From Fluviicola sp. (GTDB taxonomy: Bacteria > Bacteroidota > Bacteroidia > Flavobacteriales_D > Crocinitomicaceae): a stretch of 51,737 nucleotides of DNA. The notes under the pieces were generated by a model. That model had not been told where the DNA came from, did not search any database, and worked only from the letters and a program-made list of their open reading frames with translations. Below, piece after piece: positions 18,662 through 23,143 of the stretch. The number at the start of each line of letters is the position of its first letter. The first letter of the stretch is position 1. The stretch lies in contig JARWZO010000017.1 in the NCBI GenBank assembly GCA_029866325.1, forward strand, positions 1 to 51,737, given 5' to 3'. The position numbers and the translations under genes are program-made.

Positions 18662-20983
18662 TCACCGAATGGTCGACGCCTGGTACAACTTCAATTCCTC
18701 CCAAGTAACTTTGTCGCCCAATTTTTCTTTGAGTTGCGATAGCGATTGGTTCTGCTCTTTTACTTCGTCGAAATAGCCTTCCAATTCACGGATACGGCTC
18801 GGCGGCATAATTTCCTCCAATTCCACCTCTTCCTGTTTGATCAAGTTCATGAAATGGCTGTAAATGGTACCGATTGTCATTTGACGAACACGAGCAATTT
18901 CCTCGAGCGGTTTTCCTTCGCGGAACAACTCCAGCGTTTGTTCGTAAGTGGTTTTCTTTTCCTTTTTCTCTGCTTTTGTGGCTTTTCCTTTCTTCGGTTT
19001 GTCTTCTGATAAAACATTACTGAAATCGTCATGCAAATCAGTTGGATCGAGCAATGAAGGTTTTTCACGCAATTCTTGTTTGATAACTGCGATTTTAGCC
19101 AACTTATAATGTTTCAACTCTTCGTTCCAAACCGCTTCTTTGGTCAGCTCTCGCCCAGCGGTTACTGCTTCTACAAGTAAACGAACTTTCTTCAAGCGCA
19201 GAATAACCTCAAGGGTTTGTTGCTCCAATTCTTCCAATTCATCAACGTATTGTTTGGTTTTTTTAATGAGCTGCAACTCGGCCATACGTTTCAAAATGGA
19301 ATAATAAACATTGTCGAGCGGTTTAAAGAAATAGGTGTACGCCGCCTGAATGCGTTCATGGATAAAACTCCAGTCCATCTGCGGTTTCACAAATTGATTG
19401 GTGAGTTGTGCCACAAATTTCTTCGCAGGATCAATGGTCGACTGAATGGCCTGACTTTGATGCGCCACCCATGATTTATCTTTTCCTTTTTCGGTTTTCG
19501 GACCCGCCAATTTATAGCTATTTTCCAGAATCATCCAGGCACTTGCCAAATCATACCAATCGAACGCAGCACTGAGTGTGTTGTATAAATAATGCTTGGT
19601 TCCTTGTTCCAAAAACGATGAAAGTTGGTGTTCGTTGGCTTTTTGCTCGGCATAAGCCACCACTTGCTGGTCGTTGGAAAGACCGTTCATTGAAATGGGT
19701 TTCAGCAACACCAATCCCTGCAGTGATCGCAAGCGCGACAGTGCGACATAAGCTTGCCCGGGCGCAAATACCTGCGAAACATCCAGTACGGCTTTATCAA
19801 AGGTCAAGCCCTGACTTTTGTGAACGGTAATCGCCCACGCCAGTTTCAATGGATAATGCACAAACGTTCCCTGAACTTCTTCGGTGATTTCTCCGGTACT
19901 TTCACTGACCGTATACTTGATGTTTTCCCATTCGTAATGCTGCACCTCGATGGTGCGTTTTTCTTCGGGGAAATACACGAAGATTTCTTTCTCGGAGATC
20001 GCGTCGATACGACCGATTTTTCCGTTGTAGAAATTTTTCTCGAACGAAATATCGTTTTTGATAAACATAACCTGCGCACCCACTTTGAGTTCGAGTTGCA
20101 GTTCGAGCGGAAACAAATGCGGTGGAAAATCGCCCTGAACAATGGCTTCGTAGAAGAGTGATTTTCCTTCGAGTGATTTCAAAGCTCCGGCATTAATATC
20201 ATCTGCTTTGGCGTTGTGCGTGGTGAGCGTAATGGTTCCTTCGTGTTCTGACGGATCAAAATCTGGGCGTACAAACCGGTTCAGGATTTCCATATCAGCC
20301 GGAGTGACTTCATTATTACGCAAGTTGTTGAGCACCTGAATGAAATCGCTGTCTTGCTGCCGGTAAATGGTCGACAATTCAATATACAATGGAGGTTGCT
20401 CGTGAATGACCCGTGCATGGAAGAAAAACAAACCGCTGTAATAATTGCGCAACTCGCTCCATTCTTCGTTTTTCACAACAGGCGGCAATTGCAGCAAATC
20501 ACCAATAAACAAGACCTGAACGCCGCCAAAAGGTGTATTGTTTTTACGCACGTTTCGGAGAGTCCAATCCATGGCGTCGAGCAAATCCGCACGCAGCATA
20601 CTCACCTCGTCGATGATAAGCAATTCCATGGAACGAAACAATTGCTGACGCGATCCGCTGTGGCGAAAATGGCGTTTGAGTGAATCTTTGGTTTCAAACT
20701 TCACCGCCGAATTGTATTGTGGCGGATGAATAAATTCGGGAATAAATCCGCCGAACGGCAATTGAAAAAACGAGTGAATGGTTACTCCGCCCGCGTTGAG
20801 TGCAGCAATACCCGTAGGTGCTACGATCACGGTTTGTTTGTGGGTGGAATCAACGATTTTGCGTAACAGGGTTGTTTTACCTGTGCCCGCTTTTCCGGTT
20901 AGAAAAACCGAGCGATTTGTTTGGTTGATAAATCGTTCTGTGAACTCCGCCGGATTGCTTATAGCTTCTGATAATGTATTCAT
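18662..20983 (-). CDS. PIF1/RecD2-like SF1 helicase with HTH_40 tail
   Basis: The 773-residue protein is a PIF1-family 5'-3' DNA helicase: Walker A GKAGTGKTT near residue 31-39, motif Ia VIVAPTGIAALNAGGVTIHS, Walker B ELLIIDEVSMLRADLLDAMD, GGVQVLFIGDLLQLPPV, and the C-terminal SF1 motif LAWAITVHKSQGLTFDKAVLD followed by YVALSRLRSL. The last ~200 residues are helical and charged and end in an HTH_40-like segment (LELFREGKPLEEIARVRQM), similar in type to the tail of RecQ in this window. Its start codon and 42 nt of leader lie inside a 47-bp direct repeat that is repeated 1200 bp upstream beyond rhuM, so its native promoter has been separated from it. Confidence 0.92.
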   Translation of the reverse strand: MNTLSEAISNPAEFTERFINQTNRSVFLTGKAGTGKTTLLRKIVDSTHKQTVIVAPTGIAALNAGGVTIHSFFQLPFGGFIPEFIHPPQYNSAVKFETKDSLKRHFRHSGSRQQLFRSMELLIIDEVSMLRADLLDAMDWTLRNVRKNNTPFGGVQVLFIGDLLQLPPVVKNEEWSELRNYYSGLFFFHARVIHEQPPLYIELSTIYRQQDSDFIQVLNNLRNNEVTPADMEILNRFVRPDFDPSEHEGTITLTTHNAKADDINAGALKSLEGKSLFYEAIVQGDFPPHLFPLELQLELKVGAQVMFIKNDISFEKNFYNGKIGRIDAISEKEIFVYFPEEKRTIEVQHYEWENIKYTVSESTGEITEEVQGTFVHYPLKLAWAITVHKSQGLTFDKAVLDVSQVFAPGQAYVALSRLRSLQGLVLLKPISMNGLSNDQQVVAYAEQKANEHQLSSFLEQGTKHYLYNTLSAAFDWYDLASAWMILENSYKLAGPKTEKGKDKSWVAHQSQAIQSTIDPAKKFVAQLTNQFVKPQMDWSFIHERIQAAYTYFFKPLDNVYYSILKRMAELQLIKKTKQYVDELEELEQQTLEVILRLKKVRLLVEAVTAGRELTKEAVWNEELKHYKLAKIAVIKQELREKPSLLDPTDLHDDFSNVLSEDKPKKGKATKAEKKEKKTTYEQTLELFREGKPLEEIARVRQMTIGTIYSHFMNLIKQEEVELEEIMPPSRIRELEGYFDEVKEQNQSLSQLKEKLGDKVTWEELKLYQASTIR

Positions 20984-21025
20984 GATTTACTTGAAGTTAA
21001 GCAAAAAGTTGAGTTTGTGAAAGGG
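20979..21025. repeat. 47-bp direct repeat, helicase-proximal copy
   Basis: This copy includes the helicase start codon (20981-20983, minus strand) and its leader. It is identical over 47 bp to 22179-22225. The offset between copies is exactly 1200 bp, and rhuM lies between them. Confidence 0.95.
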
Positions 21026-21090
21026 GGAACTACTTTTTAATCTATTTTTTTTCATGGTGTCGTAACTTGAGAAAACCTTGAAACAGGATT

Positions 21091-22104
21091 TTACTTTTTA
21101 GGAGAAGAAATTTTTTTCGTTTGTTTTTCGAAGTCGCTTACAAAAGTAGAATCCTGAACTATTCGAAATTTACCGTACTCATTTTCAGCTAGACTTCTTG
21201 CGACTTCCTGTTTCACACTCCCGGCATCTGCTAAAATTTGGTACTCATTAAATTCAAGAAATGCATCAAGCTTAGAAATCCAGTCTTTCATTTTCATCGG
21301 TATTTTTCGATTCGCCTGATTTTCGGCATAGTCAAGATACATGGTAACAATTCGTTCGAGTTCTTTGATTTCTTTCTCGATTAGGTAATTTTTAGCAACA
21401 ATGATATCCGATTTCAAAATTTTTCCATCAGGTGAATTTTTCCAGGTTTGTAAGCCCATATTCGGTTTGGATGAGTCGACTCTTTCAGCAATAAGTTCTG
21501 CGGCTGTTTTTCCGGTAATCGCCCAATGCAATTTGTTTTGTACGGTCTTGAAGAATGTTTGCGTTAGCTCAATATCTTTATTGTAATCGATACTACATTG
21601 CTCATAAATATCTGTGATTTTCAAGTAAAAGCGTCTTTCACTGGCACGGATTTCGCGTATGCGGTCTAATAGTTGATCAAAATAATCTTTGTTAAACAAT
21701 GACTCGCCTTGCTTCAGTCGTTCATCATCCATCGCAAAGCCTTTCACTAGGTATTCTCTCAAAACTCCGGTTGCCCAAATCCGAAATCGCGTTGCGCTTT
21801 GAGAATTAACGCGATAGCCAACTGAAATAATGGCGTCTAGATTATAAAAAGCGGTTATGTATTTTTTGCCATCAGATGCAGTATGTGCATTTTTTGCACA
21901 CACTGATTCTTCCGCTAGCTCAGACTCTTTGAATATATTCTTTAAATGCTTCGTAATCACCGTTCTGTCTACCTCAAATAGTTCAGACATTCCCTTTTGT
22001 GTTGTCCAGACCGTTTCGTTTTGCTCATCAACAATCACTTGTACGGTATCCTTTCCACTGGGATTGGTGTAAAATAGGAAGTTTTGCGTATTCTCCAAAT
22101 TCAT
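21091..22104 (-). CDS. rhuM: RhuM family protein (virulence RhuM)
   Basis: The 337-residue product matches the RhuM family by its pattern: an N-terminal segment YTNPSGKDTVQVIVDEQNET, a helix-turn-helix-like WTTQKGMSELFEVDRTVITK then HLKNIFKESEL, the linker YNLDAIISVGYRVNSQSATR, then RIWATGVLREYLVKGFAMDDERL and a long helical region. RhuM-type proteins are scattered across genomes and often sit inside restriction-modification or phage loci; their biochemical role is not established. The N-terminus recalls phage antirepressor-like DNA-binding modules. Here it is a lone gene flanked by 47-bp direct repeats in the leader of the PIF1-like helicase gene, same strand, so it may be transcribed from the helicase promoter. 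Confidence 0.88.
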   Translation of the reverse strand: MNLENTQNFLFYTNPSGKDTVQVIVDEQNETVWTTQKGMSELFEVDRTVITKHLKNIFKESELAEESVCAKNAHTASDGKKYITAFYNLDAIISVGYRVNSQSATRFRIWATGVLREYLVKGFAMDDERLKQGESLFNKDYFDQLLDRIREIRASERRFYLKITDIYEQCSIDYNKDIELTQTFFKTVQNKLHWAITGKTAAELIAERVDSSKPNMGLQTWKNSPDGKILKSDIIVAKNYLIEKEIKELERIVTMYLDYAENQANRKIPMKMKDWISKLDAFLEFNEYQILADAGSVKQEVARSLAENEYGKFRIVQDSTFVSDFEKQTKKISSPKK

Positions 22105-22159
22105 TTTATCAATTCATTTTGTGTTTTGAAAGATGACTTTATAACGAATAAGTCCAAGC

Positions 22160-22183
22160 TTAATTACTGCTGTTTTCTTTCAT
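22160..22183 (-). other. Orphaned start codon with 7-codon frame
   Basis: The upstream repeat copy contains the same leader and ATG as the helicase gene, but the ATG now opens a frame of seven codons (MKENSSN) before TAA. It looks like the original helicase start cut off by the rhuM insertion, and may behave as a small upstream frame ahead of rhuM. Confidence 0.55.
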
Positions 22184-22225
22184 GATTTACTTGAAGTTAA
22201 GCAAAAAGTTGAGTTTGTGAAAGGG
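22179..22225. repeat. 47-bp direct repeat, promoter-proximal copy
   Basis: This copy is identical to 20979-21025. Sequence beyond it (22226 onward) carries the candidate promoter, so this copy sits in what was probably the original helicase leader. Confidence 0.95.
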
Positions 22226-22250: not shown

Positions 22251-22258
22251 CGAAGGTA
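22251..22258 (-). promoter_or_regulatory. Candidate displaced helicase promoter (-7 TACCTTCG)
   Basis: The minus strand reads TACCTTCG followed by CAGCA, one base off TAnnTTTG. The same 12-nt block (CGAAGGTACGGA on plus) occurs at 32067-32078 upstream of the thioesterase gene. Transcription from here would cross the 47-bp leader and then rhuM before reaching the helicase. Confidence 0.4.
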
Positions 22259-22281: not shown

Positions 22282-22333
22282 AGTTTTTAAGTTTATTGAG
22301 TTGAAACTTACAAACTCAATAAACTTAAAAACT
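22282..22333 (-). terminator. 21-bp perfect hairpin downstream of the 22342 gene
   Basis: Arms 22282-22302 and 22313-22333 are perfect 21-bp complements (outer bases AGTTTTTAAG, inner ATTGAGTT) with a 10-nt loop, beginning 9 nt after the stop of the minus-strand gene. The position suggests transcript 3'-end formation. It belongs to the same AT-rich repeat family as 23094-23143. Confidence 0.55.
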
Positions 22334-22341
22334 TAATAAAC

Positions 22342-23025
22342 TCAGATGCCATCCACCACCCTCATCAAATATCGCTCATCCTCTAGAATCCAAGTTACTT
22401 CATAGCGGTTCTCACCTTCGCCGTTGAGCATATAAAGATACATGTGATGACCTGTTTCCGATTTAAGCAGTCGCAAGTTTGGTGTGACTAATGGTTCTCT
22501 GTGAACATATTTACCAACAGGATGATACTCCCATTCACACGGCCATGGTTCGTAAATGCCTATGAATGCTGCCGGAGGAAAATCGACCAAAAAATGTGAA
22601 TGCAACACAAAAAACACATCGCTTACTTTGCGTGTGGGCAACTCTCCATTCGTGCCCCAAAATGGCTGACCATCTATTTTTGTAAGTACCTTGTGCCTTC
22701 TATTGGAATACGTAAGTGGATGCCCAACAGTATCAAAGGCTGAAAAGTAAAGGTGGATATACGCCGACTTTAAATGAAAATTGGCGACTGTATCCGAACA
22801 GGAAACTAGCGGAATTTCAGTCAATTTTACCGCTTTCACAGCAGCTTGTTGTTTGATCGAATCGCCCTTGCGGTTGAAAGAAGCAATTTCATTTCGGATG
22901 GTTGTATCTGTAAGGTTCCAGAAGCTTTCGCGGGCTTTCAAAGTTTGCACGGAAACCGAATCCTGCTGGCACAAGGCACTTTTCGTGATGCAAAACAAAA
23001 AAACAAGGGATGTTAGTTTAAGCAT
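22342..23025 (-). CDS. Secreted protein of unknown function
   Basis: I do not recognise this family. From the ATG at 23025 the product has 227 residues and a clean signal peptide (MLKLTSLVFLFCITKSALC, cleaved near Q); a TTG at 23049 would add eight residues. The mature part has a helical N-terminal stretch, then beta-rich segments with Trp/Tyr/His (GIYEPWPCEWEYHPVGKYVH; HHMYLYMLNGEG) and ends in a short strand-rich WILEDERYLMRVVDG. It is flanked by hairpins on both sides and by its own -7 box, so it is probably monocistronic. Confidence 0.65.
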   Translation of the reverse strand: MLKLTSLVFLFCITKSALCQQDSVSVQTLKARESFWNLTDTTIRNEIASFNRKGDSIKQQAAVKAVKLTEIPLVSCSDTVANFHLKSAYIHLYFSAFDTVGHPLTYSNRRHKVLTKIDGQPFWGTNGELPTRKVSDVFFVLHSHFLVDFPPAAFIGIYEPWPCEWEYHPVGKYVHREPLVTPNLRLLKSETGHHMYLYMLNGEGENRYEVTWILEDERYLMRVVDGI

Positions 23026-23093: not shown

Positions 23094-23143
23094 AGTTTTT
23101 TGAATTCGCGAATTCAAACTTAAAAAACTCACGAACTTAAAAA
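23094..23143 (-). repeat. AT-rich inverted repeat with 20-nt perfect palindrome
   Basis: A perfect palindrome TTTGAATTCG/CGAATTCAAA lies at 23099-23118, flanked by AGTTTTT (23094) and AAAAAACT (23122-23129), with another AACTTAAAAACT copy up to 23143. It directly follows the stop of the minus-strand gene at 23144 and may act as its terminator. Confidence 0.55.

What the first reader, a model, noticed from the sequence alone, without database searches (positions are those of the whole stretch)
20979..22225. rhuM gene flanked by 47-bp perfect direct repeats in the leader of a PIF1-like helicase
Two identical 47-bp blocks (20979-21025 and 22179-22225) lie exactly 1200 bp apart around a lone rhuM gene. 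The repeat contains the helicase start codon and 42 nt of leader. Outside the distal copy lies a plausible -7 box (TACCTTCG at 22251-22258), while the distal ATG now opens only a 7-codon frame. The simplest reading is that a single-gene unit entered the helicase leader with a long duplication, leaving the helicase intact but separated from its promoter, and that recombination between the copies would restore the original state. There is no recombinase nearby, so the mechanism would have to act in trans or be homologous. Whether this is a reversible switch or a defence-related cassette is inference.
Basis: partly seen in the sequence, partly recalled or inferred. Interest (0 to 1): 0.75.

Follow-up and report, generated by a model that had tools for sequence, protein, structure and literature searches.

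The report
Old gene insertion with duplicated leader
Long ago a single mobile gene (rhuM) was inserted in front of a helicase gene together with an extra copy of that gene's start region, so both genes probably kept a promoter; it looks like a stable example of a known but poorly understood kind of gene insertion, not a reversible switch.

Summary
In detail: 47/47 identical direct repeats, 1200 bp apart, flank a lone rhuM upstream of an intact PIF1-like helicase. A sister species (G011, one 4.55-Mb contig) has the same insertion with both copies. rhuM and the helicase have diverged equally (dS 1.01, 0.93) and rhuM is under purifying selection (dN/dS 0.08). So the insertion is old, stable and no assembly error; nothing supports a switch. 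The repeat carries a conserved -7-like box of the helicase leader (TANCTTNR in 21 of 30 leaders, 1.1 expected), so the promoter was probably duplicated, not cut off. Both copies stayed 96% identical between species while the spacers fell to 58-64%. Long direct repeats, in several cases a neighbouring gene's end or leader, also flank 8 of 68 other rhuM genes in an unpicked set, 8 of 29 YhcG and 5 of 69 viral rhuM genes, against 1 of 30 p450 and 0 of 30 helicase genes. This fits "insertion with long target duplication", described for restriction-modification genes. No empty allele with the same flanks was found, so the mechanism is inferred.

The parts
22179..22225 (-). distal repeat copy (47 bp): helicase-type leader with -7-like box TAACTTCA (22199-22192) and an ATG (22183-22181); now the leader of rhuM
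22160..22183 (-). short frame opened by the distal ATG: 7 codons plus stop; first 4 codons kept in G011, whose frame stops after 5 codons
21091..22104 (-). rhuM, 337 aa, PF13310; dN/dS 0.081 against G011
20979..21025 (-). proximal repeat copy (47 bp): leader, -7-like box TAACTTCA (20999-20992) and start codon of the helicase
18662..20983 (-). PIF1-like helicase with C-terminal HTH_40, intact, 773 aa
22251..22258 (-). second -7-like box TACCTTCG upstream of the distal copy, conserved in G011
22282..22333 (.). hairpin with 21-bp perfect arms between the upstream neighbour's stop and the distal copy; probable terminator that separates rhuM from the neighbour (inferred)

Best explanation
The locus is an old insertion of rhuM into the leader of the helicase gene, made with a long duplication of the target. 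The duplicated 47 bp (perhaps longer at first) contain a probable helicase promoter and start codon. Shown: the repeats, the shared insertion in a sister species, equal divergence of rhuM and helicase, purifying selection on rhuM, conservation of both repeat copies, and the conserved -7-like box inside the repeat. Inferred: that each copy works as a promoter, one for rhuM and one for the helicase, so the insertion did no harm; that this is why both copies persist; and that deletion by homologous recombination between the copies is possible but selected against because rhuM (a candidate defence gene) is kept. How the duplication arose is not known. The likeliest routes are integration by homologous recombination of a piece carrying rhuM plus a stretch homologous to the target (circle or single crossover), or template-switching repair; no dedicated recombinase is needed.
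For: Repeats and genes. Same insertion in G011. Identity between G000 and G011: distal copy 45/47, proximal 46/48 columns, spacers 48/75 and 39/67, rhuM gene 82%; substitutions 3 of 94 in the repeats against 24 of 111 in the spacers, Fisher p 6e-5. dS 1.01 (rhuM) and 0.93 (helicase), dN/dS 0.081 and 0.024. TANCTTNR within 50 nt of the start in 21 of 30 helicase leaders, resampled leaders mean 1.1, max 5. The 12 other congeners searched have the helicase, no leader repeat and no rhuM beside it. Similar architecture elsewhere: 8 of 68 rhuM genes in an unpicked set, 8 of 29 YhcG, 1 of 30 p450, 0 of 30 helicase, 5 of 69 viral-contig rhuM; swapped flanks 0 of 240. In several the repeat is the end of a neighbouring gene: succinyl-CoA ligase, cytochrome c and DNA polymerase III alpha 3' ends, two HsdR 5' ends, two integrase 5' ends or leaders in viral contigs.
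Against: No empty allele with the same flanks was found; the helicases of the 12 empty congeners are only 63-71% identical, so the exact empty site is not seen. The -7-like box of the proximal copy in G011 is changed (TAACTACA), so promoter function of that copy is doubtful there. Conservation could reflect some other function of the leader. No transcript data. The excess of flanked rhuM genes is modest: 8 of 68 against p450 plus helicase 1 of 60, p 0.026; against p450 alone 1 of 30, p 0.17.
Confidence: 0.7

Rival explanations
1. Reversible cassette or switch: recombination between the repeats removes and restores rhuM, changing helicase expression.
For: 47 bp of perfect identity 1.2 kb apart would allow deletion by homologous recombination (general knowledge); the copies are still 100% identical in G000.
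Against: G011 carries the same filled state at dS about 1; its two copies differ at three bases and one inserted base, so they are not being homogenised there; rhuM dN/dS 0.08 means steady retention; the repeat carries its own -7-like box, so excision need not change helicase expression.
Confidence: 0.06
2. Site-specific integration: the repeats are attL and attR of a tyrosine-recombinase element, integrase lost or acting in trans.
For: Direct repeats at a gene end that leave the gene intact are typical of att sites (general knowledge); in genus g50 the 3' end of carB is a repeated cargo site with duplicated carB ends, 8 of 18 of which start within the same 8 bases of carB.
Against: No recombinase among 13 neighbours scanned; the helicase leader is no hotspot: no leader repeat in the 12 other congeners; the repeats of ten other rhuM loci that I read share no evident common sequence (by eye) and differ in length, 69 to 215 nt.
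Confidence: 0.12
3. Leader duplication came first (a tandem duplication of leader and helicase) and rhuM later replaced the body of one copy.
For: It would give the same final order; each gene has its own leader.
Against: No helicase remnant between the repeats (best blastn E 0.07, best tblastn E 2.5); needs two events; other rhuM loci duplicate 3' gene ends, which this route does not explain.
Confidence: 0.07
4. Assembly artefact or chance similarity of two promoters.
For: None found.
Against: Same structure with slightly different copies in G011 on a 4.55-Mb contig; 47/47 identity.
Confidence: 0.01

Closest known systems
Insertion with long target duplication (Nobusato et al. 2000, Gene 259:99; not read, seen only as cited in passages of PMC3031569, PMC3874152, PMC1643837, PMC4978471)
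   Same: Gene inserted in a chromosome between long, variable direct repeats of the target (order of 100 bp per PMC3874152), without a known mobile element.
   Different: Cargo here is a lone rhuM, not a restriction-modification system; the duplicated stretch is a leader with probable promoter and start codon; both copies stay conserved at dS about 1. No empty allele seen.
Mobile ORF endonucleases of fungal mitochondria (Allomyces atp6, Glomus; passages of PMC3630166)
   Same: A lone gene sits at a gene end and a duplicated gene end lies on its far side.
   Different: Those carry a LAGLIDADG or GIY-YIG endonuclease; RhuM shows no recognised nuclease domain, and the duplication here is a leader, not a C-terminus.
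RhuM family (PF13310; PADLOC PDC-S05)
   Same: The gene is a clear member (1.4e-109); RhuM-like genes occur in restriction-modification loci and are often fused to a DOC domain (passage of PMC3710099).
   Different: Here it stands alone beside a helicase and is inherited vertically between two species.
Genomic islands with att repeats
   Same: Direct repeats at a gene end that keep the gene intact.
   Different: No integrase found nearby, a 1.2-kb unit with one gene, no hotspot at this leader.

Membership tests
Insertion with long target duplication | inserted gene flanked by long direct repeats of variable length | tested here: met
   47/47 in the window, 52 columns at 90% in G011; 69-215 nt at other rhuM loci
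Insertion with long target duplication | repeat is target sequence present once in the uninserted allele | tested here: inconclusive
   the 12 other congeners have no repeat of the helicase leader, but none is known to share the upstream flank
Insertion with long target duplication | no transposon ends or recombinase at the insertion | tested here: met
   no recombinase in 13 neighbours scanned; no inverted repeat of 16 nt or more at the unit's ends
Insertion with long target duplication | presence/absence difference between related genomes | tested here: met
   between species only: 2 of 14 genomes of the genus have rhuM beside the helicase; no strains of one species compared
Insertion with long target duplication | restriction-modification cargo (usual in the literature, not defining) | tested here: not met
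   cargo is rhuM only; one carB locus in another genus does carry a methylase with a SacI-like enzyme (L260)
RhuM family PF13310 | match above the curated cut-off | tested here: met
   365.7 bits against 33.7
Tyrosine-recombinase genomic island | integrase gene in the element or beside it | tested here: not met
   (13 neighbours scanned)
Insertion sequence or transposon | transposase, terminal inverted repeats, short target duplication | tested here: not met
   47-bp repeats
Homing-endonuclease mobile ORF | encodes a site-specific endonuclease | tested here: inconclusive
   Pfam only RhuM; predicted model (pLDDT 81.9) has no PDB match at E 0.001; activity not testable here
Phase-variable switch | two interconvertible states | tested here: inconclusive
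   only the filled state seen in G000 and G011; no reads available

The most novel reading that the evidence does not exclude
RhuM and YhcG genes belong to a class of lone mobile genes in bacteria and prophages that settle at the ends of other genes and each time duplicate some 40-300 bp of the host gene end or leader, so that they spare the host gene and may gain a promoter: a bacterial counterpart of fungal mobile ORFs, possibly driven by their own products (YhcG carries a PDDEXK nuclease domain).
Probability: 0.1. Interest if true: 0.75.

Novelty: new member of a known kind. Interest (0 to 1): 0.4.

Why it matters
Lone accessory genes without any mobility gene are common in bacterial genomes, and how they enter is poorly understood. 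In this survey about one in nine rhuM genes (8 of 68) and about one in four YhcG genes (8 of 29) of Bacteroidia still show a long direct repeat around them, against 1 of 30 p450 and 0 of 30 helicase genes. That makes the mode of entry countable and testable. The window's case adds that the duplicated stretch can hold a probable promoter, so an insertion upstream of a gene need not cut its expression, and that both copies can be kept for a very long time.

Tried and rejected
Close empty allele: sought by the genome search in 59 genomes and by a genome-contig scan with the helicase (2 loci, neither useful). The 47-mer has no exact match in viral contigs. Empty-site tests for two other rhuM insertions failed because their genera hold one genome each; a third search was run but I did not analyse its hits. 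carB hotspot: 20 loci picked out of 39 genomes, most because extra hits were visible, so no rate; 15 of 20 had extra copies of the carB 3' end; only 3 of 17 extra copies were nearest to their own carB end, which speaks for gene ends moving with cargo between species, but the tails of loci without extra copies were discordant too, and this is another genus and gene. A viral scan with the single rhuM protein found no relative; one with an alignment gave 80 loci of 232, 69 of them with enough flank. One search was partly wrong (two short loci compared with themselves, their letters printed whole); redone. One search used a 1000-bp limit (8 of 80 rhuM, 7 of 29 YhcG, 0 of 29 helicase); a 1200-bp limit (11 of 80 rhuM). 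The 80 include 12 genes from 11 stretches picked, three of which I had already seen to be flanked; without these picks it is 8 of 68, from 69 of the 77 rows; I report 8 of 68. In the rhuM loci 10 of 119 other ORFs were flagged with a looser limit, 3 of them by the same repeat as rhuM. The rhuM structure search gave nothing usable (best E 0.058). Taxonomy of the organism was not determined.
Full report
What is there. The window is one whole contig (C22) of a 4.68-Mb genome in 32 contigs. Reading the minus strand: an unnamed gene ends at 22342; a hairpin with perfect 21-bp arms follows (22333-22282, RNA fold -27.7 kcal/mol, z -7.3); then TACCTTCG (22258-22251), the distal repeat (22225-22179), a 7-codon frame, rhuM (22104-21091), a 65-nt spacer, the proximal repeat (21025-20979) and the helicase (20983-18662). 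The two repeats are identical over 47 bases.

Age and stability. The 14 genomes of the genus that were searched all have the helicase; two, G000 and G011, have rhuM beside it. Four of the others (G006, G007, G010, G013) have rhuM matches elsewhere. In the 12 others the longest exact repeat of the leader within up to 1.5 kb upstream is 8-16 nt (in G004 the contig gives only 1.05 kb). G011 has both repeat copies; they differ from each other at three bases plus one inserted base. Between G000 and G011 the distal copy is 45 of 47 identical and the proximal 46 of 48 columns, while the two spacers inside the unit are 48 of 75 and 39 of 67. Substitutions are 3 of 94 in the repeats and 24 of 111 in the spacers (Fisher p 6e-5). 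rhuM has dS 1.01 and dN/dS 0.081, the helicase dS 0.93 and dN/dS 0.024. So the insertion came before the two species parted, was inherited with the helicase, and both copies of the repeat appear to be held by selection. Perfect identity in G000 is therefore not a sign of a recent event.

Promoter. In 21 of 30 helicase leaders (genus, family and order; the window and G011 included) a box TANCTTNR lies within 50 nt of the start (resampled leaders: mean 1.1, max 5). In most of the genus it sits 13-16 nt before the ATG. It resembles the Bacteroidota -7 element TAnnTTTG (consensus recalled, no call). In the window this box (TAACTTCA) lies inside the repeat, so each copy has one. The upstream box TACCTTCG is also conserved in G011, so rhuM may have two starts. 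Against this: the box of the proximal copy in G011 reads TAACTACA, and no transcript data exist. I call the promoter duplication probable, not shown.

Is it more general? I fetched 69 of the 77 rhuM matches that a Pfam search of 296 Bacteroidia genomes listed; they hold 68 rhuM frames, of which 8 have a direct repeat of at least 75% identity and E 1e-6 on both sides within 1200 bp. Eleven further stretches picked add 3 of 12, but I had seen these three beforehand, so I leave them out of the rate. Flanks swapped between loci give 0 of 240. With the same test YhcG genes give 8 of 29, p450 genes 1 of 30 and the helicase 0 of 30 (families; the tool's best 30 loci each). rhuM 8 of 68 against both controls together p 0.026, against p450 alone p 0.17; YhcG against both p 0.0004. 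Viral contigs: 5 of 69. Several repeats are the end of a neighbouring gene: 108 nt of a succinyl-CoA ligase 3' end, a cytochrome c 3' end, 215 nt of a DNA polymerase III alpha 3' end, two HsdR 5' ends, the 5' part of a T5orf172 gene; the leader of a DUF1016-like gene in G046 (name by eye); two phage integrase 5' ends or leaders. Others are intergenic or unassigned (L116, L161, L172). In the six named by Pfam among the rhuM loci the neighbouring gene reads on and the other copy is a fragment; three of the units hold a second gene beside rhuM (L105, L114, L149). rhuM relatives also occur in 49 of 50,697 phage and 124 of 72,556 plasmid records, all below 60% identity, so the family is carried by mobile elements.

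A richer example. In one genus (39 genomes) the 3' end of carB (Pfam CPSase_L domains) collects different cargo, among them YhcG genes and a cytosine methylase with a SacI-like enzyme. Of 20 loci that I chose, 15 have one or more extra copies of the carB end; 16 of the 17 copies compared reach the last few bases of the gene. Only 3 of these 17 are closest to their own carB end. This suggests that gene ends travel with cargo between species and recombine there. It is a lead for the mechanism, not evidence about the window itself.

Literature. PMC3874152 (passages) says some restriction-modification systems insert with long and variable target duplications in the order of 100 bp; PMC3031569, PMC1643837 and PMC4978471 (passages) cite Nobusato et al. 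2000 for it; in PMC2869330 the term was found only in the reference list. I did not read Nobusato 2000; Furuta 2010 is not held. PMC3630166 (passages) describes fungal mobile ORFs with duplicated gene ends. PMC3710099 (passages) proposes that RhuM is a toxin domain. A search for 'rhuM' with 'target duplication' found 0 papers in the held library; that is not proof that nothing is in print.

Verdict. A real, old and stable insertion of rhuM with a long duplication of the target that includes a probable promoter. A new member of a known kind, useful as a well-dated example; the switch idea is not supported. Interest is moderate; the wider pattern around rhuM and above all YhcG is the more interesting part.

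Noticed in passing
L220 and L248-L267 (genus g50, carB 3' end): The 3' end of carB is a cargo hotspot with repeated duplications of the carB end (15 of 20 chosen loci); 14 of 17 extra copies are nearer to another genome's carB end than to their own.
   Followed up: partly
L174-L203 (YhcG loci): YhcG/DUF1016 nuclease genes are flanked by direct repeats more often than rhuM (8 of 29 loci).
   Followed up: partly
window 22282-22333: Perfect 21-bp-arm hairpin between the upstream neighbour and the distal repeat; a related 22-nt motif recurs at 23116-23137.
   Followed up: partly
window about 21840-21940 (rhuM codons roughly 55-88): Short stretch of rhuM that differs strongly between G000 and G011, with a length difference, while the rest is conserved; may reflect recombination between rhuM alleles or diversifying selection.
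   Followed up: no
L269 and L278: In two viral contigs rhuM lies next to a phage integrase gene whose 5' end or leader is duplicated on the far side of rhuM.
   Followed up: partly
L049 (G010:C1 around 261680): A rhuM fragment lies beside a large array of repeats with a spacing of about 141 nt.
   Followed up: no
window 22160-22183: The short frame after the distal ATG keeps its first four codons (MKEN) in G011 although the sequence behind it is poorly conserved; possible leader peptide.
   Followed up: no
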